From Methylosinus sp. C49 (GTDB lineage Bacteria; Pseudomonadota; Alphaproteobacteria; Rhizobiales; Beijerinckiaceae), in the NCBI RefSeq assembly GCF_009936375.1, contig NZ_AP022332.1:1917501-1981500 (forward strand): a stretch of 64,000 nucleotides of DNA. The letters are read 5' to 3'. Position 1 is the stretch's first letter. The number at the start of each line of letters is the position of its first letter. The notes beneath the pieces were generated by a model. That model did no database searches, had not been told where the DNA came from, and saw only the letters and a program-made list of their open reading frames with translations. Shown here one piece after another: positions 15,715-56,171 of this stretch. The translations under genes were made by a program, and so were the position numbers.

Positions 15715-16512
15715 CTATCCTGGGCTGGCCGCCGATCCGGCCAGCAGGCCGCCGTCGATGTTCAGCTCGGCTCCGGTGACATAGGTCGCCTCGTCCGAGG
15801 CCAGCAGCACGGCGAGCGCCGCGACTTCCTCCGGCCGTCCGAACCGGCGCAGGGGCGTGTCGCGAACGAAGGCCGCCATGCGGGCCTCGCGATCGGGACC
15901 GCTTCCGAGCATGGGCTCCCACATCGGCGTCAGTATCGCGGCCGGATGGATCGAGTTGCAGCGGATCGCGAGGCCCTGCGCGGCGCACCATAGAGCGACG
16001 GTCTTGGTATGGTTGCGCACCGCCGCCTTGGAGGAGGCGTAAGCGGCGGCGCCCGCAATGCCGACGAGGCCCGATCGCGAGGATATGTTGATGATCGATC
16101 CGGTCCCCGCCGGCCGCATCGCGCGGATCGCATGTTTGCAGCCGAGAAACACGCCGTCGAGATTCGTCTCATGCACGGCGCGCCAATCCTCGAGGCGCGC
16201 ATTTTCCGGGTCATGGGCGGCGGCGCCGGCTTCGAAGCCGGTGATCCCCGCATTATTGACGACGACGTCCAGCCGACCGCGCTCGGAGAGCGCGAGAGCG
16301 ACGACCTCGCGCCAATCGGCTTCCTCCCGCACGTCGAGACTTGCGTAAGCGGCGCCTTCGCCGAGCGCTGCGGCCGTCGCGCGTCCGTTGTCGTCGTCGA
16401 TATCGGTCAGATAGACGAAGGCGCCTTCGTTGACGAAGGCCCGGGCGATCGCCGCGCCGATGCCTCGCGCCGCGCCGGTCACGAGCGTTACTTTCTCTTT
16501 CAGCCGAGTCAT
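15715..16512 (-). CDS. Short-chain dehydrogenase/reductase, classical type
   Basis: A 265-residue Rossmann-fold oxidoreductase. The cofactor motif TGAARGIG is at 12-19, with an acidic LTDID segment after strand 2 (NAD preference likely), NNAG at 86-89, catalytic Ser near 144, and Tyr158 and Lys162 in AYASSKAAV. The C-terminal [14 protein letters not shown] is the classical family ending. Closest in flavour to cyclohexanol/3-alpha-hydroxysteroid-type or FabG-like dehydrogenases, but the substrate cannot be read from the sequence. It is upstream of ruvB on the same strand; functional linkage is not evident. Confidence 0.85.
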
Positions 16513-16607
16513 TCGGCGCTCCCGGTTTCAGTCCGTCCGCATGTTCGGCGGCCGAACAGATGCGCGGAATGGGGCGTTATGTTAGAGTGCCGCCAGGAGC
16601 CGAGACC

Positions 16608-17192
16608 ATGAGCCGCCCCTCGTCGCAATACGAGTATATGTCCCTCGATGATTTCGAGGAACTGCTCGCCGACAAGCCCACGAATGAAAAGTGGGAGCTG
16701 ATCGGCGGCCGCGTCGTGCGCATGATGGTGGGCGCGCGATGGGAGCATAATTACATCATCCAGAACCTTTCCTCCGGCATTCGTGAGAGGCTGAGGGCGA
16801 ATGGCTCGTCGTGCCGGACATTAACCGAGAGCTTCCGGCTGCGTGACGCCCCTATGGATTCGTCCATGCTGCCCGATGTGATCGTGCATTGCCGTCCGCT
16901 CGAGCCCGGCGCGACGTCGCTGAACGATCCGACGGTCCTCGTCGAGGTCATGTCCGAGGGCAGCAAGGCGCGCGACCGTTTCGAGAAATGGGCCGTCTAT
17001 CAGAAGCTGCCGAGCCTGCGTCATTACGTGCTGGTCGAGCGCGACCGGGCGCATATAGAGACCTTCGATCGGGAGGGCGCGGTCTGGGCCGGCGTGCGTA
17101 TTCTCGATGGCCTGGAGGCGGAGCTCGATCTGCCGGCGATCGGCGTGAGCGTTCCGCTCGCGGAAATCTATCGGGATGTGATCGAAAGCTAG
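16608..17192 (+). CDS. Uma2-family (DUF820) putative PD-(D/E)XK protein
   Basis: A 194-residue protein of the Uma2/DUF820 family: MSLDDFEELLADKP near the start, then KWELIGGRVVRMM, the restriction-endonuclease-like core with LPDVIVHCRP, and VLVEVMSEGSKARDRFEKWAVY, followed by YVLVERDRAHIETF. These keep the Asp, Glu-x and following basic residue expected of a PD-(D/E)XK nuclease fold. Biological function of the family is unsettled. The ATG at 16608 is preceded by AGGAG at 16595; an earlier in-frame ATG has no such site. The gene ends 48 bp before the mobile element's insertion point. Confidence 0.8.
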   Translation: MSRPSSQYEYMSLDDFEELLADKPTNEKWELIGGRVVRMMVGARWEHNYIIQNLSSGIRERLRANGSSCRTLTESFRLRDAPMDSSMLPDVIVHCRPLEPGATSLNDPTVLVEVMSEGSKARDRFEKWAVYQKLPSLRHYVLVERDRAHIETFDREGAVWAGVRILDGLEAELDLPAIGVSVPLAEIYRDVIES

Positions 17193-17232
17193 CAACGTCA
17201 GATTTTGTTGTTCCGGAGGCTGGAACGAACGA

Positions 17233-17240
17233 AATTGTTT
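17233..17240 (+). repeat. Left target-site duplication AATTGTTT
   Basis: The 8 bases AATTGTTT directly abut the left terminal inverted repeat and recur exactly at the right edge (20079-20086). Eight-base duplications are what IS1595-family elements generate. Confidence 0.9.
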
Positions 17241-17264
17241 GGGGATTATCCCATTGAGGCACGT
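17241..17264 (+). repeat. Left terminal inverted repeat
   Basis: Begins GGGGATTATCCC and continues ATTGAGGCACGT. It matches the reverse complement of the right end at 21 of 24 positions (mismatches at 13, 18 and 22). Confidence 0.88.
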
Positions 17265-17584
17265 AGGCGCGCGGCGTTCGTAATAACACACATACCATTC
17301 GTTTAACGAAACGCTCCAAAAGGAATTTATTCTGCATGATAGCTACGGTTTAGCCGGCGGCTTATTTGAGTTACCCCGCGAGGTAACAATCTTGTTCACC
17401 TAACGCGCCGCAGGTTCCCGCAAAGCCGACGTGATGCAGGGTGCGATGCGGAGTGATTGGGGTTGAATTTTTTGTCGCACTGTGCAACATATGCAACGTT
17501 GGACGGCACCGAGAGCGTTTGGATCCTCGCCCCATTGGCTCAAAGGGGCTTGAAACGGTCACAAATCGGCTCTGGCGGCCAGTG

Positions 17585-18148
17585 TCAGGGGACGGGGTTC
17601 GCGCCCGTCACGCCGTCTCTTCTCCACAAAGGATTTACATCTCGCATATTCCGCTTTGGAATCGCAGTTGTTATGCTCCAGATACTAAGATCGTCATCCC
17701 ATTGGCAGACAATGTGATGGTAGATTAGTTCAAATTCGGCAATCAATATGATTCGACCGTCTGGCTGCTTGCCAATAAATGCAACATCAGCAAACACTCT
17801 GCGTAGATAAGCGTGGAGGGAGGCGAAACCCATCCCTCTAATTTGCTTCATTCTACCTTCGTTTGATTCTATGTGCGCGCAACCAAAGCCAGTTTCGCGG
17901 CCCTGAACTCCATTCAGTAGCCTCACAACTCCGCGCCGGCAAACGACCGCATCGCATTGGGCGGCAGACAGCGCCCATTCAGCCGGGCGGCCGAGACGGT
18001 CGAGCGCGGTTCTTTTTGTTGGGGGGATGATGGTCTGCGATGGAATGGTCACGCTTTGAACATATGCCGCCCGCGGGTAGCTGTCAAACGCGCGGCGGAA
18101 CAAACCGAGGCTTGCTATCCGCGTCGCGGTATGCGAAGACGTCCCCAT
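17585..18148 (-). CDS. Passenger protein of unknown function in the mobile element
   Basis: A reading frame of about 187 residues from the ATG at 18148. I do not recognise the family. The C-terminal half reads as convincing protein (FADVAFIGKQPDGRIILIAE, then a WDDDLSIW segment), with AT-rich codon third positions unlike the host genes, as expected for imported DNA. The N-terminal part is Arg/Ala-rich and less convincing. The start is uncertain: this ATG shares two bases with the start of the divergent plus-strand gene, leaving no intergenic promoter, and an internal ATG at 17851 would give a shorter protein. No signal peptide or membrane segment. Confidence 0.45.
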   Translation of the reverse strand: MGTSSHTATRIASLGLFRRAFDSYPRAAYVQSVTIPSQTIIPPTKRTALDRLGRPAEWALSAAQCDAVVCRRGVVRLLNGVQGRETGFGCAHIESNEGRMKQIRGMGFASLHAYLRRVFADVAFIGKQPDGRIILIAEFELIYHHIVCQWDDDLSIWSITTAIPKRNMRDVNPLWRRDGVTGANPVP

Positions 18149-18692
18149 GATGAACACCGCCGACATTGATGCGTCCATCCGGAACCGAGAAGCGCAGGTC
18201 GAGGAGTTGCGCCGCCAACTTGAGCTGGCTGAGGCCGAGCTGAAGGGAATGAAGACTATCCGCGCCGCGATTGGGCGATCCGCCCACCCTCATCAGCCGT
18301 CGCGGGCTGCGGCGGTCATTGAGAAGGTGCGTCAAGCTGGATACTCGGGAGGCCGCCAGCCGGGGGCCATTTCGCGCCCATGGCGGATGATCTACTCCGA
18401 TATGTATCACGGATTCCCGAATGCGTGGTTTTCTGAGCAGCAGCTAACGATTAGCGCGTTCAACAATGGGATCAAACTGAGGCCGAAGGAGGCTAAAGAT
18501 CGGCTGTCGGCGCACGCCATGCACCGGATCGTCGAACAAGCCCCGGACAGCCCCGGCTACTGGCGGGTCACTGAGGAGGCCGCCAGAAAGTTTGGGTTCG
18601 ACAAAGAGCCCCTAAAGAATGAAGCCCCGAGCGCCGAGGCGTCGGGGCCGCAAGAATCCCTCGGGACGGGGGATCAGACCGGCGCTGATTAG
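18147..18692 (+). CDS. Passenger protein with N-terminal coiled coil, unknown function
   Basis: A 181-residue protein. Residues 3-38 form a strong heptad coiled coil (NREAQVEELRRQLELAEAEL). Residues about 50-150 look like a compact, probably alpha-helical domain (SRPWRMIYSDMYHGFPNAWF, then HAMHRIVEQAPDSPGYWRVT), with a winged-helix-like ending; the tail from about 155 is Pro/Glu/Ser-rich. It could be a DNA- or protein-binding accessory factor, but I do not recognise a family. No clear ribosome-binding site precedes the tandem ATGs. A good intrinsic terminator lies about 90 bp downstream. Confidence 0.6.
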   Translation: MMNTADIDASIRNREAQVEELRRQLELAEAELKGMKTIRAAIGRSAHPHQPSRAAAVIEKVRQAGYSGGRQPGAISRPWRMIYSDMYHGFPNAWFSEQQLTISAFNNGIKLRPKEAKDRLSAHAMHRIVEQAPDSPGYWRVTEEAARKFGFDKEPLKNEAPSAEASGPQESLGTGDQTGAD

Positions 18693-18782
18693 ACGCCGGA
18701 GAAAGGAGCTTCGGGATGGTTCCCCATCCCTTCGCGGTATGGTGGCTGGAACCCACCTACCGCTTGCTCTTATAGTCGAAGA

Positions 18783-18810
18783 GGGGTCGGCATGCGCCGG
18801 CCCCTTTTTT
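18783..18810 (+). terminator. Rho-independent terminator inside the mobile element
   Basis: A 9-bp stem (GGGGTCGGC at 18783-18791 pairing with 18796-18804, one G-T wobble), a 4-nt loop ATGC and six T residues. It ends the coiled-coil passenger gene's transcript. Confidence 0.85.
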
Positions 18811-18873
18811 GTTGCTCGCATACGTGCTATCCTTTGTCAAGGCAATTCCGCCTGAATCGTGACTGGAATCAGC

Positions 18874-19098
18874 ATGTTAACTCTCGCGGAAGCGGTAAAG
18901 ACCTCGAGATTACAGGAATTTATCGCCCAAGAGGAAGCTCGCGGCGTCGGCCCGATTGACCGGGCCGATTTCGATGCGTTGGCTGCGGCACTCGTCAGAG
19001 CGCCGCAATCAGAAGATCAAACATCGCGTTCCGCATCTGACGATGGTTCGATCGGAAAGAGAACTCCCCCAAATAGCGATCCATGTGCTTCGCGCTGA
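18874..19098 (+). CDS. Small protein overlapping the transposase 3' end in antisense
   Basis: A 74-residue frame. The first 40 residues (MLTLAEAVKTSRLQEFIAQE, then EARGVGPIDRADF) read as a compact helical protein. The Ser/Thr/Asp-rich remainder is encoded antisense to the last 104 bp of the transposase gene. The start at 18874 is weakly supported; a GTG at 18859 is the alternative. It may be a real small gene of the element that uses the transposase end as its 3' part, or a partly fortuitous frame. No function is assignable. Confidence 0.4.
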   Translation: MLTLAEAVKTSRLQEFIAQEEARGVGPIDRADFDALAAALVRAPQSEDQTSRSASDDGSIGKRTPPNSDPCASR

Positions 19099-19921
19099 TA
19101 TGAATGTGCGTCGAGTTCACGCTGTCCTTAAATAGCTTCCAAAACGACTCGACGCCTTGCGTATGGTGCGTCTCTTTGGTCCGGTAATCGTAGTAGGACC
19201 ATTCCTTAGCGCTATGGTTCACCGCGCCGTGCTTGAAGCCGTCGCCCTCAAGTAAACCATACGAAATCAGTTCATCGGTCGAGACGGCGGAGCCGGGCTC
19301 GACGGTATCGAGAACCACATTGCGCAGCGTGTCCTTTTTCACGTCCGGGATAACCTGAACCTCGATACGGCCGCCGCGCTCTTTAAGCCCCATAACGATG
19401 GTCTTGCCCTCGGCGCCGCGGCCGCGCTTACCAGACCGCTTCCCGCCGACGTAAGCCTCGTCAAGCTCAACGTGGCCTTTGAGCATTTCGAAGCCATTGG
19501 CCTTTTCCATAAGCGTGCGGATTTGCATGCCGATCCGGTATGCGGTCTTGTAGGTAACGCCGAGCGTGCGCTGAAGCTCCTTGCCACTCACACCGTGGCG
19601 CGTCGCGATAAACAGGTAGATTGCATAGAACCACGTTTGAAGGGGCGTGCGGCTATCCTGGAAAATCGTTCCAGCGCAGGGGTAAATATGGTGCCCGCAA
19701 GCGGCGCAGGAATAGGCACGGCGCTCCGCCAGCTTATGAAAGGTCGCGTCCTTACCGCACTTTTCGCAGACGTGGCGCAGGCCATAGCGCACTTCCATAA
19801 CGCGCTGAATGCAGGCATCGTCATTCGGGAACGTCTCGAAAAACTCGCGAACCGAAAACGCCTGAACGCCGCTGACGTTCTGGCCGGCTTGGGAAGGGCG
19901 GTTGCGCTTACGAGTCGTCAT
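18995..19921 (-). CDS. IS1595-family (ISXO2-type) DDE transposase
   Basis: A 308-residue transposase. An N-terminal zinc ribbon has Cys52/Cys55 and Cys72/Cys75 (CEKCG and CAACG). A central helical region with GVSGKELQRTLGVTYKTAYR follows. The ISXO2-like DDE domain has Asp154 in VELDEAYVGG, Asp216 in STDELISYG and Glu258 in TQGVESFWKLFK, so the catalytic triad is intact and no frameshift is seen. The ATG at 19921 is preceded on its strand by AGGAGATACGGAC, a good ribosome-binding site; an earlier in-frame ATG at 19972 would overlap the internal terminal-repeat-like copy. It probably moves the whole flanking 2.8-kb unit. Confidence 0.92.
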   Translation of the reverse strand: MTTRKRNRPSQAGQNVSGVQAFSVREFFETFPNDDACIQRVMEVRYGLRHVCEKCGKDATFHKLAERRAYSCAACGHHIYPCAGTIFQDSRTPLQTWFYAIYLFIATRHGVSGKELQRTLGVTYKTAYRIGMQIRTLMEKANGFEMLKGHVELDEAYVGGKRSGKRGRGAEGKTIVMGLKERGGRIEVQVIPDVKKDTLRNVVLDTVEPGSAVSTDELISYGLLEGDGFKHGAVNHSAKEWSYYDYRTKETHHTQGVESFWKLFKDSVNSTHIHISAKHMDRYLGEFSFRSNHRQMRNAMFDLLIAAL

Positions 19922-19961
19922 GTCCGTATCTCCTATGACGTGAACTGTGCCATAGGCCGAT

Positions 19962-19986
19962 ACGTGTGTCAATGGGATAAAATGCC
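19962..19986 (+). repeat. Internal copy of the element's terminal repeat
   Basis: ACGTG-TG-TCAATGGGATAA here matches the left terminal repeat read on the minus strand (ACGTG-CC-TCAATGGGATAA) at 18 of 20 positions, in right-end orientation. That is closer than the true right end is over the same stretch. It lies about 40 bp upstream of the transposase start, in its promoter region. Confidence 0.65.
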
Positions 19987-20054
19987 GGAATACTGTCCTA
20001 TTTTTGCGTTCTGTATTACACCTGAATTCGTTCTTTTAAAAGAATTCTCCGAGC

Positions 20055-20078
20055 ACCTGCTTCAAGGGGATAATCCCC
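20055..20078 (-). repeat. Right terminal inverted repeat
   Basis: Read on the minus strand it begins GGGGATTATCCCC, itself a 13-bp palindrome, then TTGAAGCAGGT. It pairs with the left end at 21 of 24 positions. Confidence 0.88.
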
Positions 20079-20086
20079 AATTGTTT
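20079..20086 (+). repeat. Right target-site duplication AATTGTTT
   Basis: Exact copy of the 8 bases flanking the left end of the element (17233-17240). Confidence 0.9.
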
Positions 20087-20097
20087 TAAAACGGCGT

Positions 20098-20289
20098 TTG
20101 TTGCACGGGTTTTCGCGAAGCATCGGCGAGAGCCTAAAAGTATTTGTTGTGCTTTTTGCTTTCTACAAATATTTTGGTGCGAACGTCGACTGGCATGTCA
20201 TCCACGTCGTTTGTGTGGTTGCGTGGACATACGAAATGGTTAGCGTGCTCGTGACGCTCTTTTGGCTGAGGGACGACTCCAAACCATAA
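20098..20289 (+). CDS. Possible small membrane protein
   Basis: A 63-residue frame with a TTG start just outside the mobile element. It is strongly hydrophobic, with two candidate membrane segments (KVFVVLFAFYKYF and VIHVVCVVAWTYEM continuing to VLVTLFW), and ends in a charged tail. Codon use is low-GC, like the mobile element. No ATG and no good ribosome-binding site were found. If the element is removed and the duplication closed, the frame stays open upstream but still gains no start codon, so this is either a small gene with a weak start or a remnant. Confidence 0.3.
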   Translation: MLHGFSRSIGESLKVFVVLFAFYKYFGANVDWHVIHVVCVVAWTYEMVSVLVTLFWLRDDSKP

Positions 20290-20327
20290 GCGTGCTTGTA
20301 TAAAACGTTCTGTAGAATCGATGCTTC

Positions 20328-20939
20328 TCACCGCGCGCCGATGCGCCGCCGGGTCTCTATCGTCACCCACACATTCGGGTCTTGCTGCGACTGGCGCTTC
20401 ACGAAGCGATAGCCGGTCGCGTCCCATGGCTTCACCTGGTCGGTGAGATTGTCGAGGATGAAATCGCCGCGATTGGTGCGCGCCGTGAGAATTGCATGGC
20501 CCTGGTCGTTCTTGTCGCGCACGATGGTCATCAGCAGCGCCTGGCGCGGAAAGCCCATTTCCATCAGCAGCCGGCGCTTCTGCAGTGCGTAGATCTTGCA
20601 GTCGCCCTTGCCGTCGGTGGGGTAGTCCCAATGATCGGCCATCGTGCCCCAATGCTCGAGATTGGAGAGCGGCTGTATCGAGGCGTTCACGGCGCGATTG
20701 ATCTCGTTCAGCCGCGCCCAGGCCTCGCGCGAGAGGTCGAGATCGGCGGCGGGCAGGGCCGTCTGCTGGCATTCCTGAGGCTGGCGGCCGCAAAAATCCA
20801 TCCAGCCATAGGGGATGGAGGTCGGCTCGCCGGTAACGACGAAACTCGCGCGCGGGACCTCCGCGCGTGCGGCCGAGGCGCTGAAGACGATGAGCGCCAG
20901 AGCGAGCGGACTCAAGACGCGAATGAGAAAATAGGCCAC
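20328..20939 (-). CDS. Exported transglutaminase-like cysteine peptidase (BTLCP family)
   Basis: A 203-residue protein. I start it at the GTG at 20939, because GGGGGATC precedes it and it gives a clean signal peptide (VAYFLIRVLSPLALALIVFS to ARA); the frame is open much further upstream but without coding character. The bacterial transglutaminase-like catalytic residues are Cys114 in GKGDCKIYALQ, His148 in QGHAILT and Asp163 in DFILDNLTD. Such proteins act in the periplasm; the best-studied relative, LapG, cleaves a surface adhesin under c-di-GMP control. No lapD or adhesin gene is adjacent, so this role is only an analogy. Divergent from the bicupin gene. Confidence 0.8.
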   Translation of the reverse strand: MAYFLIRVLSPLALALIVFSASAARAEVPRASFVVTGEPTSIPYGWMDFCGRQPQECQQTALPAADLDLSREAWARLNEINRAVNASIQPLSNLEHWGTMADHWDYPTDGKGDCKIYALQKRRLLMEMGFPRQALLMTIVRDKNDQGHAILTARTNRGDFILDNLTDQVKPWDATGYRFVKRQSQQDPNVWVTIETRRRIGAR

Positions 20940-21152
20940 GCGATCCCCCGAAGCCGGCGTGGAGCGCCGCAGCCCGCCGCTACGGAGCGCCTCGCCATCG
21001 AGGCCGAGAATGCGCGCGCGCCTTTTGCCCGCTCGCCAATTCGAATGCTCGGATTTTAGCGATCCCGCGTTTTTCCCTGCGGTTGACCCTCGCGCTGTCG
21101 GCGCAATCTGACAGAGGCGGTCGCCTCCCCTTTCCCCCGGAGAAAGAAGCAA

Positions 21153-26496: not shown

Positions 26497-26574
26497 CGGA
26501 GTGTAGCGCAGCCCGGTTAGCGCACTTGTCTGGGGGACAAGGGGTCGTGGGTTCGAATCCCGCCACTCCGACCA
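26497..26574 (+). tRNA. tRNA-Pro (anticodon GGG)
   Basis: Acceptor CGGAGTG pairs with CACTCCG, followed by discriminator A and an encoded CCA. The D arm is GCGCAGCCCGGTTAGCGC. The anticodon stem CTTGT/ACAAG encloses CTGGGGG with GGG at the anticodon position. The T arm is GTGGG-TTCGAAT-CCCGC. All stems pair. It decodes CCC and CCU. Confidence 0.97.
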
Positions 26575-54149: not shown

Positions 54150-55796
54150 TCACGCCTCCCGATAGGCGAGCAGCATCAGTCCGGCCAGAGTGAAGGCGAT
54201 GGGCCAGACGATTCCGGCGATGCGCGCGCCGCGGCCTTCGAGGCGTATCTCCAGCCAGCGGGCGGAGGAGGCGAGCAGGCCGACCAGCGCCAGCGGCGTA
54301 TGGGTGACCTCGATCAGAAACTCTTCCCTGATGTTGGAGAGTCCGTGCGAATGGGCGAGCAGCAGCGCGCCGCCGACGCCGGTGATGAAGGGGAAGGCGA
54401 GCGGCGCCCATTGCGCCTTCACGCGCCGCGTCCGCACGCGCCACTCGAAGATTCCGAAGCAGATGATGAGCGCGAGGAAGATGCGATGCTGCGCGATCTC
54501 GGGGTCGCGCAGGCTCTCGATGAGTCCGAGCTGGCCGAGCGGCCAGACGGCTTCGTCGGCGCGCAGAAATAGAAAGCCGGCGAGGCCGAGCATCAGCATC
54601 GGCCAATGGCGTGCGACGGGGGAAAGGCGCCGCCAATGCTCGAGCAGCGCCAGCAGCCCCATGGCGGCGACGAAGAGCCCGGCGATGTGGTGATTATATT
54701 CCGACCAGGCGATGTCCTCGGCGTTGCGCTGCGCCGCGAGGGAGGCCGTTACCGCGTCGCTCGCCTCTGTCGACGGCGTTGCATCGGCGCGCGCGGTCTG
54801 AACCTGCGGCAGCGAGATGGAGAGGGTGGAGTGATCCGGGCTCTCGAGGCGCGGCGGCCATTGTGGCGTCAGCCGCTCGACGATCTCGGCGAAGCTCACC
54901 CGGTCGCGCGTGAGATCGACGGCCGGCGGCAGCGAGGAGAGCGAGGCGGCCGCGAAAACGACCGTCCAGCCGACGCCGATCTCCACCTCCGCGAAACGGC
55001 GCAGCCGCGCAAAGGCGCCTCGATCGGCCGGAGAGCGGCGGACCGCGAGGAAATTGAGCGCGCCGAGCGACAGCAGGCCGGCGAAGAGGATGGCCTTGGC
55101 GCCCACCATCACGCCATAGGCGGCGCCGTAGAAATTCTCGACCGCGCCGATATAGACGATCGACAGGGCGACGCCGCCGGCGGCGATCATCGCCACGGCG
55201 ACCGTGGAGAGATGCGAGAAGCGCAGGCCGATGGCGCGCTGCGCCTCGCCGTCCGGCGCGCGGGCCAGCGCCATGAGGAAATAGGGAATGCCGCCGATCC
55301 ACAGAGCGACGCCGGTGAGATGCGCGAGCTCGGCGGCGACGAGGCCCGGCGGATTGTCGAGCCGGCTGACGGCGTGCGTGGCGCCGAGCCGGGCGCAGAT
55401 CAAAGCCGCCGCGAAGGCGGCGAGGGGCAGGGGCCGCGCCGCGCCGCCGCGAATCGCAAAGGCGAGCGCGAGGGCCGGCGCCGCCGCGAGCGCATCCGCC
55501 TTCACCGCATCGGCGGTGAGCGCATCGACGAAGGAGAGCTCCAGCGCGCCGACGAGCATGGTCGCGAGCGCCGCCGCGTCGAGAGAGACGAGACAGGCGA
55601 GGACGAGCGCGCTCCAAAAGACGATTCGTCCGGCGCGCGCGGCGATGGGCTCCGCCGCCGCGCCGAGCCGCGGCGCCAGCGGCTCGGCGATGAGCAGCAG
55701 AAAGGCGACGCCGCCGACGGCGAGCGACAGCGCCCCCGAGATGGAGCCGCGCAGAATGACGCTGAGAAAGCCGTAGATCTCGATGAATTGCTGCAT
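54150..55796 (-). CDS. copD: CopD-family copper transport/resistance membrane protein with extra C-terminal domain
   Basis: A 548-residue polytopic membrane protein. Residues about 1-310 are the CopD domain with roughly eight helices, including ELAHLTGVALWIGGIPYFLM with its conserved His and GVMVGAKAILFAGLLSLGAL. After a periplasmic loop (about 300-345), a second membrane domain follows with in-helix or loop-edge His residues: YNHHIAG, AQHRIFL, LLAHSHGLSNIREEF and VTHTPLALVG. CopC delivers copper to CopD for passage over the inner membrane. The start is 3 bp after the copC stop. The extra domain may be a second metal-handling unit; that is inference. Confidence 0.85.
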   Translation of the reverse strand: MQQFIEIYGFLSVILRGSISGALSLAVGGVAFLLLIAEPLAPRLGAAAEPIAARAGRIVFWSALVLACLVSLDAAALATMLVGALELSFVDALTADAVKADALAAAPALALAFAIRGGAARPLPLAAFAAALICARLGATHAVSRLDNPPGLVAAELAHLTGVALWIGGIPYFLMALARAPDGEAQRAIGLRFSHLSTVAVAMIAAGGVALSIVYIGAVENFYGAAYGVMVGAKAILFAGLLSLGALNFLAVRRSPADRGAFARLRRFAEVEIGVGWTVVFAAASLSSLPPAVDLTRDRVSFAEIVERLTPQWPPRLESPDHSTLSISLPQVQTARADATPSTEASDAVTASLAAQRNAEDIAWSEYNHHIAGLFVAAMGLLALLEHWRRLSPVARHWPMLMLGLAGFLFLRADEAVWPLGQLGLIESLRDPEIAQHRIFLALIICFGIFEWRVRTRRVKAQWAPLAFPFITGVGGALLLAHSHGLSNIREEFLIEVTHTPLALVGLLASSARWLEIRLEGRGARIAGIVWPIAFTLAGLMLLAYREA

Positions 55797-55799
55797 GGC

Positions 55800-56171
55800 T
55801 CAGCGGCCGACGCGAAAGGAGATGTCGCCGCGGGTAATGTGCCCGTCGACGCTCAGCACCTGCCAATGCAGCCGATAGGCGCCGCGCCGAAGATCATGCA
55901 GCCCGGCGCGCAGCTCATCGGCGGCGCCGCCTTCCAGCAGTGGAAGCATAGTTCCATGCATGTCCGGCGAGATCAGCAGCAGCCGCGAGCGGCGCGCGTC
56001 TATCCGACAGTTGAATCTCAGCTCCACATCGAGATCGGGTCCAAAGACGATCTGCGCTTCGCGCGGCGTCGATTCCGAGAGGACGGCATGCGCCTGCGCA
56101 GGCCTCGCTCCTTCGATCCAAATTGCCGCCGCGGCCCCGCCGATCGCCAAGACGATATCACGCCCCCTCAT
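55800..56171 (-). CDS. copC: CopC-type periplasmic copper-binding protein
   Basis: A 123-residue protein with a signal peptide (MRGRDIVLAIGGAAAAIW to ARPAQA). The mature N-terminus AHAVLSESTPREAQ supplies the family's N-terminal copper ligand His, and the C-terminal VDGHITRGDISFRV supplies the second His in the usual SADGH position. The strand that normally reads FSEPV is FNCRID here, with an unusual Cys. CopC binds Cu(II) tightly and passes it to CopD. I prefer the ATG at 56171, which has AGGAG upstream, over ATG 56195. It is coupled to copD, 3 bp apart. Confidence 0.88.
   Translation of the reverse strand: MRGRDIVLAIGGAAAAIWIEGARPAQAHAVLSESTPREAQIVFGPDLDVELRFNCRIDARRSRLLLISPDMHGTMLPLLEGGAADELRAGLHDLRRGAYRLHWQVLSVDGHITRGDISFRVGR

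What the first reader, a model, noticed from the sequence alone, without database searches (positions are those of the whole stretch)
17233..20086. Precisely delimited IS1595-like element with an exact 8-bp target duplication and unfamiliar cargo
Seen directly: 24-bp ends starting GGGGATTATCCC match at 21 of 24 positions in inverted orientation, and AATTGTTT flanks both ends exactly. The transposase keeps Cys52/55/72/75 and D154, D216, E258. Known: IS1595-family elements duplicate 8 bp and some carry passenger genes. Inferred: a recent, probably still mobile insertion of a 2,838-bp unit carrying at least two genes that I cannot place. The lower GC supports an outside origin.
Basis: partly seen in the sequence, partly recalled or inferred. 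Interest (0 to 1): 0.8.

Follow-up and report, generated by a model that had tools for sequence, protein, structure and literature searches.

The report
Cargo-carrying jumping element with displaced end
This is a small bacterial jumping element that carries extra genes; it belongs to a lineage that keeps the same mobility genes but swaps its passengers, and this copy seems to have moved one of its ends outwards and kept the old end inside, where its promoter survives.

Summary
In detail: a 2,838-bp unit (17241-20078), ends alike at 21 of 24, exact 8-bp duplication, intact IS1595-family transposase. It is single-copy in its genome and was not matched in 9 same-genus genomes; no exact empty site could be shown. 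Of 27 distinct related loci examined, window included, 20 have inverted ends with exact 8-bp duplications. Constant in the lineage are a transposase-side end that looks like the transposase promoter, the transposase, and in many members a small convergent gene under purifying selection. Passengers differ between elements, some defence- or toxin-like. New here: this copy holds the usual transposase-side end only as a decayed internal relic that keeps the promoter; an end 93 bp further out is the one used. Its cargo is two genes with few detected relatives, a predicted coiled-coil/winged-helix protein and a 155-aa protein with a prophage-region relative; codon comparisons suggest both are real genes. 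Their function is inferred only.

The parts
17233..17240 (.). left copy of the 8-bp target duplication AATTGTTT
17241..17264 (+). distal (cargo-side) terminal inverted repeat
17585..18052 (-). cargo gene 2, 155 aa from a GTG start chosen by me (first listed as a 197-aa ORF 17585-18178); relative in a prophage-like region (L081), 43% identity; lowered pN/pS; nuclease identity only a recalled resemblance
18147..18692 (+). cargo gene 1, 181 aa, predicted N-terminal coiled coil plus winged helix; homologue in the related element L038 (about 40% identity) and one in L004, where no element end pair was seen
18874..19098 (+). small convergent gene (74 aa from the ATG; its 3' part overlaps the transposase end); the N-terminal part is conserved in part of the lineage
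18995..19921 (-). IS1595-family transposase, 308 aa, zinc ribbon plus DDE domain
19944..19972 (-). promoter-like TTGACA-17-CACAGT kept in and beside the relic end
19962..19985 (-). relic of the family's usual transposase-side end (GCATTTTATCCCATTGACACACGT), not the boundary bracketed by the present duplication
19986..20078 (-). 93-bp extension ending in the terminal inverted repeat now used (20055-20078)
20079..20086 (.). right copy of the 8-bp target duplication AATTGTTT

Best explanation
A unit transposon of the IS1595 family, from a lineage (alphaproteobacterial, judging by the organism names) built as [end that is also the transposase promoter] - transposase - small convergent gene in many members - exchangeable cargo - [distal end]. 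SHOWN: boundaries, duplication, transposase family and residues, the shared layout, cargo differences between relatives, selection signal on the small gene. INFERRED: the DDE transposase binds the GGGGATTATCCC ends and moves everything between them, making 8-bp duplications at AT-rich targets; because the -35 box lies in the end, transposase bound there would also repress its own gene. In this copy that double role has been split: the unit picked up a surrogate end 93 bp outside the old one and later moved with it; the old end lost its terminal GGGGA but kept TTGACA and the -10 region because the gene still needs a promoter. The cargo (181-aa predicted DNA-binding protein and a divergently transcribed 155-aa protein) most likely acts as a small regulator-plus-effector, addiction- or defence-type module; this last step is a guess at about 35%.
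For: Transposase: PF12762 6.2e-41 and PF12760 1.2e-8, NF033547 1.7e-55, residues. Ends and duplication. Lineage: exact 8-bp duplications with inverted ends in 20 of 27 distinct loci, window included (18 by script, L047 and L059 by eye). Relic: nucleotide homology of L034, L035, L036 and L038 starts at their base 6 and at base 99 of this element, an offset of 93; relic score 23.0 against a maximum of 18.8 (99th percentile 11.4) in 110 shuffles; the best internal score in the other 21 sequences is 6.9. Promoter: mean -10 match 3.53 of 6 at a 17-bp spacer over 17 elements (the window by its relic) against 0.41-2.41 at the other spacers from 10 to 23 and 1.06 at the distal ends (no shuffle control). 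Small gene pN/pS 0.45 against 1.02 and 1.58 in shifted frames. Cargo genes pN/pS 0.54 and 0.45, one pair each, against 1.08-1.33 in shifted sense frames. Cargo swap: L034 and L035 are 91% identical over bases 1-1058 and show no further match over 60 bp at E up to 1e-5.
Against: A single copy, so no direct sign of movement in this genome. No precise empty site: in 7 same-genus genomes homology stops near 17183 and resumes near 20327-20332, so the intergenic remnants are also lineage-specific. The 93-bp extension has no homologue beyond its terminal ~24 bp among 22 elements apart from 10-bp words, so its origin is unknown. The likelihood ratio that calls the outer end distal-type is weak: the window's own distal end scores +0.43 and five other distal ends score above zero. 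The winged-helix model is weak (mean pLDDT 55; best PDB match E 0.097). The 155-aa protein has no family hit and its model failed (pLDDT 38). PADLOC gives nothing for either cargo gene of the window. One antisense frame also has lowered pN/pS, 0.63 and 0.57.
Confidence: 0.8

Rival explanations
1. The internal end-like sequence is not a relic end but an operator/promoter that resembles the end because transposase binds it for autoregulation; the outer end is the original end.
For: It keeps TTGACA-17-CACAGT and ATCCC.TTGAC.CACGT and lies directly upstream of the transposase.
Against: In relatives such as L034 the same position is the terminal end with its own 8-bp duplication, and homology starts there; none of the other 21 sequences has a comparable internal copy.
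Confidence: 0.12
2. The cargo encodes helper functions for transposition (target choice, repression or immunity) rather than host-directed functions.
For: The 181-aa protein is shared with L038 beside a different partner gene, and several other elements carry small proteins that by eye look like coiled coil plus winged helix.
Against: Three profile comparisons did not join those proteins into one family; several relatives carry instead GmrSD, NYN, VapD-like or DUF5343 genes.
Confidence: 0.3
3. The cargo is passive hitch-hiking DNA without a selected function in this setting.
For: No hit above a curated cut-off for either gene in the libraries searched; detected relatives are few: for the 181-aa gene L004 in 1 of 396 other order genomes plus L038 by ORF comparison, for the 155-aa gene one strong match, in 1 of 396 other order genomes.
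Against: pN/pS of 0.54 and 0.45 against one relative each, though this averages over the whole divergence and does not prove selection in this copy.
Confidence: 0.25
4. Chance inverted repeat and repeat pair around an unrelated transposase.
For: None found.
Against: 0 of 20 shuffles give such a pair (1 of 20 did for L038 and for L049); the same ends recur around related transposases; the end pattern with up to 3 mismatches occurs only at these two places in the 4.7-Mb genome.
Confidence: 0.01

Closest known systems
IS1595 family (DDE_Tnp_IS1595 / ISXO2-like), related to eukaryotic Merlin
   Same: zinc ribbon plus DDE domain and 8-bp duplications (family traits from passages of PMC8101967; measured here); GGGG-starting ends as in the member ISApl4 (passages of PMC12561309)
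   Different: 2.8 kb with three further genes, where the passages describe a single transposase gene; displaced end with internal relic
Passenger-carrying IS1595 elements described by Siguier, Gagnevin and Chandler 2009 (content recalled; only the citation was seen)
   Same: transposase plus passenger gene between IS1595-type ends
   Different: whether their passengers or a small convergent gene match those here could not be checked; ISfinder and that paper were not available
Elements L034-L038 in Methylocystis silviterrae, M. rosea, MAG BP5.bin57 (two) and a Beijerinckiaceae MAG (found here)
   Same: 78.5-81.5% transposase identity over the aligned part, same ends and layout; the small-gene motif in four of the five
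   Different: different cargo in each; no internal relic end

Membership tests
IS1595 family | DDE_Tnp_IS1595 catalytic domain with D, D, E residues | tested here: met
   PF12762 E 6.2e-41; NF033547; residues
IS1595 family | N-terminal zinc ribbon (all groups but IS1016, PMC8101967 passages) | tested here: met
   PF12760 E 1.2e-8; four Cys kept
IS1595 family | 8-bp target duplication | tested here: met
   AATTGTTT, 8 of 8
IS1595 family | terminal inverted repeats beginning GG (stated for Merlin in PMC8101967; GGGG in ISApl4) | tested here: met
   GGGGATTATCCC at both ends
IS1595 family | a single transposase gene (wording of PMC8101967) | tested here: not met
   three further genes inside the ends; passengers are reported for the family (recalled), so I do not take this as excluding membership
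ISfinder subgroup (ISNwi1, ISPna2, ISNha5 and others) | closest reference transposase and ends | not testable with these tools
   ISfinder is not held
Phage Barnase-EndoU-colicin-RelE-like (PBECR) nucleases, for 17585-18052 | match to the Pfam models or fold | tested here: inconclusive
   no Pfam hit at E up to 5; model pLDDT 38; the resemblance (G.G.AH, WS.TTA.P) is recalled only
Winged-helix DNA-binding proteins, for 18147-18692 | H-H-H-strand-strand fold | tested here: inconclusive
   predicted topology fits, block pLDDT 46-76 there; weak PDB matches include LexA, Fur and MarR, none below E 0.09

The most novel reading that the evidence does not exclude
A lineage of IS1595 elements in Alphaproteobacteria works as a one- or two-gene shuttle for defence and addiction genes: a fixed mobility module with a small partner gene, and a cargo slot refilled by capturing new ends, of which this copy shows a capture event (on the transposase side) with the old end still readable.
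Probability: 0.3. Interest if true: 0.65.

Novelty: new variant of a known kind. Interest (0 to 1): 0.45.

Why it matters
How insertion sequences become cargo transposons is an open question. Here an element appears to preserve both its old and its new end, shows the promoter and the transposition end coming apart, and sits in a lineage whose near members have swapped cargo at a sharp boundary. It also gives a tractable set of small mobile units, some carrying candidate defence and toxin genes, and a small conserved gene of unknown role that in 6 of the 8 places found by search lies at the 3' end of such a transposase.

Tried and rejected
Rfam over 16500-21000: no match at E up to 1; the tRNA-like look of 17590-17620 was dropped (ARAGORN finds only a tRNA-Pro at 26497). 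Relatives of the cargo in plasmids and phages: none. In viral contigs: none in four scans. In 171 other genomes of the class: none for either profile. PDB by sequence: nothing credible; the B3-domain match at E 0.094 was set aside. Homology among the coiled-coil/winged-helix-looking cargo proteins: not shown. Other internal relic ends: none in 21 other sequences. Source of the 93-bp extension: no match beyond the terminal repeat and 10-bp words among 22 elements; no second copy in the own genome. The 16 weak matches of the 197-aa ORF at E 3.7e-4 to 0.01, one of them in the own genome, were treated as chance and not used. Transposase hits under 40% identity were left out of the end scan. Literature: the listings (15 of 15; 25 of 180; 20 of 73; 3 of 3; 10 of 14) showed no paper whose title or abstract start described this lineage or its cargo; passages were read in PMC12561309, PMC8101967 and PMC11092175 only.
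Full report
OBSERVATION. A scan around the transposase for any inverted pair (at least 15 of 24) with an exact 8-bp repeat returned only this pair, and 0 of 20 shuffles returned one. In the 4.70-Mb genome the unit occurs once, the transposase once, and the end pattern, with up to 3 mismatches, only at these two places.

TRANSPOSASE. The ORF on the minus strand matches DDE_Tnp_IS1595 (6.2e-41) and Zn_ribbon_IS1595 (1.2e-8) in Pfam and NF033547 (1.7e-55) in NCBIfam. Homologues and the AGGAG before it (seen) favour the ATG at 19921 (308 aa).

LINEAGE. One scan of genome contigs gave 17 loci, and an order-wide search found matches at E up to 1e-40 in 32 of 397 genomes, own included; ten larger stretches were taken from those genomes and two plasmid regions were read. 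Three places came from two sources. Of 27 distinct loci, window included, with transposase hits of at least 40% identity, 18 have ends of at least 15 of 24 plus an exact 8-bp duplication by script (the shuffle control gave 1 of 20 for L038 and for L049 and 0 of 20 for the rest), and two more, L047 and L059, by eye; L035 has 6 of 8; L042, L045, L046, L049, L050 and L056 gave no pair, several of them being cut by the contig end or in the transposase. Elements with a pair run from 1.67 to 3.69 kb. The 15 duplications found first are 74% A+T.

CONSTANT MODULE. The transposase-side end carries TTGACR in 16 of 17 elements (TTGACC in L048; the window counted by its relic) and, 17 bp on, a -10-like hexamer: mean match 3.53 of 6 at that spacer, against 0.41-2.41 at the other spacers from 10 to 23 and 1.06 at N17 of the distal ends (no shuffle control was run). 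I read this as the transposase promoter lying in the end. A small ORF convergent with the transposase groups 13 of 22 sequences by BLAST, partly through its overlap with the transposase gene; its motif FxxQEEARGxGP is present in 9 of 22. Over 36 codons outside the transposase gene (in the window) pN/pS is 0.45 (36 pairs of 9 sequences), against 1.02 and 1.58 in shifted frames. Of 397 order genomes 7 have it at E up to 0.001, in 8 places; by coordinates 6 of those 8 overlap transposase matches (G000, G255 twice, G158, G364, G208), and those in G060 and G326 do not. Conversely, most of the 32 genomes with a transposase match gave no hit for the small gene.

CARGO SLOT. L034 and L035, in two Methylocystis species, are 91% identical over bases 1-1058 and show no further match over 60 bp at E up to 1e-5. 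The window's and the five nearest transposases form a supported group (97/97), and their cargo differs: window, 181-aa and 155-aa genes; L034, a 144-aa protein; L035, GmrSD (Pfam 3e-34; PADLOC HEC-06 2.3e-157); L036, a 283-aa protein; L037, a protein with a sub-threshold DUF1828 match (PADLOC PDC-M24B 4.4e-5); L038, a VapD-like protein (NCBIfam 1.1e-9, below its cut-off) plus a homologue of the 181-aa gene. Elsewhere: NYN (HEC-09, 2.2e-41) in L040, DUF5343 (PDC-M34A, 1.8e-6) in L043, VapD-like in L041 and L061, peptidase M78 in L039, a weak PIN match in L054. The VapD-like trio matches solved VapD at 5.8e-15. Of 20 proteins scanned against PADLOC, six match at E up to 0.01, one of them (L055) weakly and one (L038) as Cas2; the window's two do not. 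Not all cargo ORFs were scanned, and I have no control for how often such genes would appear by chance, so the defence reading is a lead.

THE DISPLACED END. In L034, L035 and L047 the end begins 13 bp before the position that aligns with residue 1 of the window's TTG-started ORF. In the window that place holds GCATTTTATCCCATTGACACACGT (19962-19985, minus strand) and the boundary used lies 93 bp further out. Nucleotide homology with L034, L035, L036 and L038 begins at their base 6 and at base 99 here. The relic scores 23.0 against at most 18.8 (99th percentile 11.4) in 110 shuffles (a two-base block shuffle); none of the 21 other sequences has an internal match above 6.9. The relic has lost the GGGGA start but kept TTGACA and a -10-like hexamer (CACAGT, 3 of 6); the outer end has TTGAAG and 1 of 6 at 17 bp. 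By a likelihood ratio the outer end leans to the distal type (-1.53) and the relic to the transposase type (+1.88), but this separates weakly: the window's distal end scores +0.43 and five other distal ends score above zero. I infer capture of a surrogate end, followed by at least one move of the enlarged unit, since the present duplication brackets the outer end. Where the capture took place is unknown.

CARGO OF THIS COPY. 18147-18692 (181 aa) has an about 40% identical homologue in L038 and one in G029 (L004), where a 14-kb stretch (L082) holds a single 12-base end-like match with up to 2 mismatches and no pair. It is predicted as a long helix followed by a winged-helix-like fold with low to moderate confidence. 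17585-18052 (155 aa from a GTG) is divergent from it, 94 bp apart; its one strong relative found is L081 in G242 (43%), among what look like phage head and tail genes (by eye). pN/pS is 0.54 and 0.45 in frame, one pair each, and 1.08-1.33 in the shifted sense frames; one antisense frame is also lowered (0.63, 0.57), as expected from shared codon positions. The 155-aa protein reminds me of phage-associated BECR-type nucleases; no library supports this, so it is recalled only.

SITE. The unit lies between the 3' ends of a Uma2 gene and a transglutaminase-like gene. In 7 of 9 same-genus genomes both flanks are seen on one contig: homology stops near 17183 and resumes near 20327-20332, with 11 to 1,371 bp between. 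No match to the element's part of the query was listed for any of the 9, the search having scored 11 candidates a genome. G398 carries a sequence that looks like another transposase gene there (by eye). Because about 290 bp of the window's own flanks are also absent, the exact empty site cannot be shown.

VERDICT. A sound member of the IS1595 family, of a cargo-swapping lineage, with an unusual displaced end: a new variant of a known kind.

Noticed in passing
window 17184-20327: Variable spot between two convergent genes: seven same-genus genomes hold 11 to 1,371 bp of DNA without similarity to the window there, in one case apparently another insertion sequence.
   Followed up: partly
window 20098-20289: 63-aa ORF, hydrophobic by eye, in lineage-specific low-GC DNA right beside the insertion; no Pfam match.
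   Followed up: partly
L036 and L037 (same MAG, BP5.bin57): Two related elements, about 86% identical over bases 1-1072, with different cargo in one genome assembly.
   Followed up: partly
L047:5766-8458: Decayed relative: transposase in two pieces and a distal end 3 bp shorter, duplication still exact.
   Followed up: partly
window 18059-18087, minus strand: TTGACA-17-TATGTT just before the GTG of the 155-aa gene, so close that a leaderless message is possible; the number of promoter-like sites (2) is that of shuffles (mean 1.9).
   Followed up: no
window 55001-56000: Highest AT skew of the window (0.343) together with the highest GC (0.714) in 1-kb steps; no repeats of 24 bp or more found there.
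   Followed up: partly
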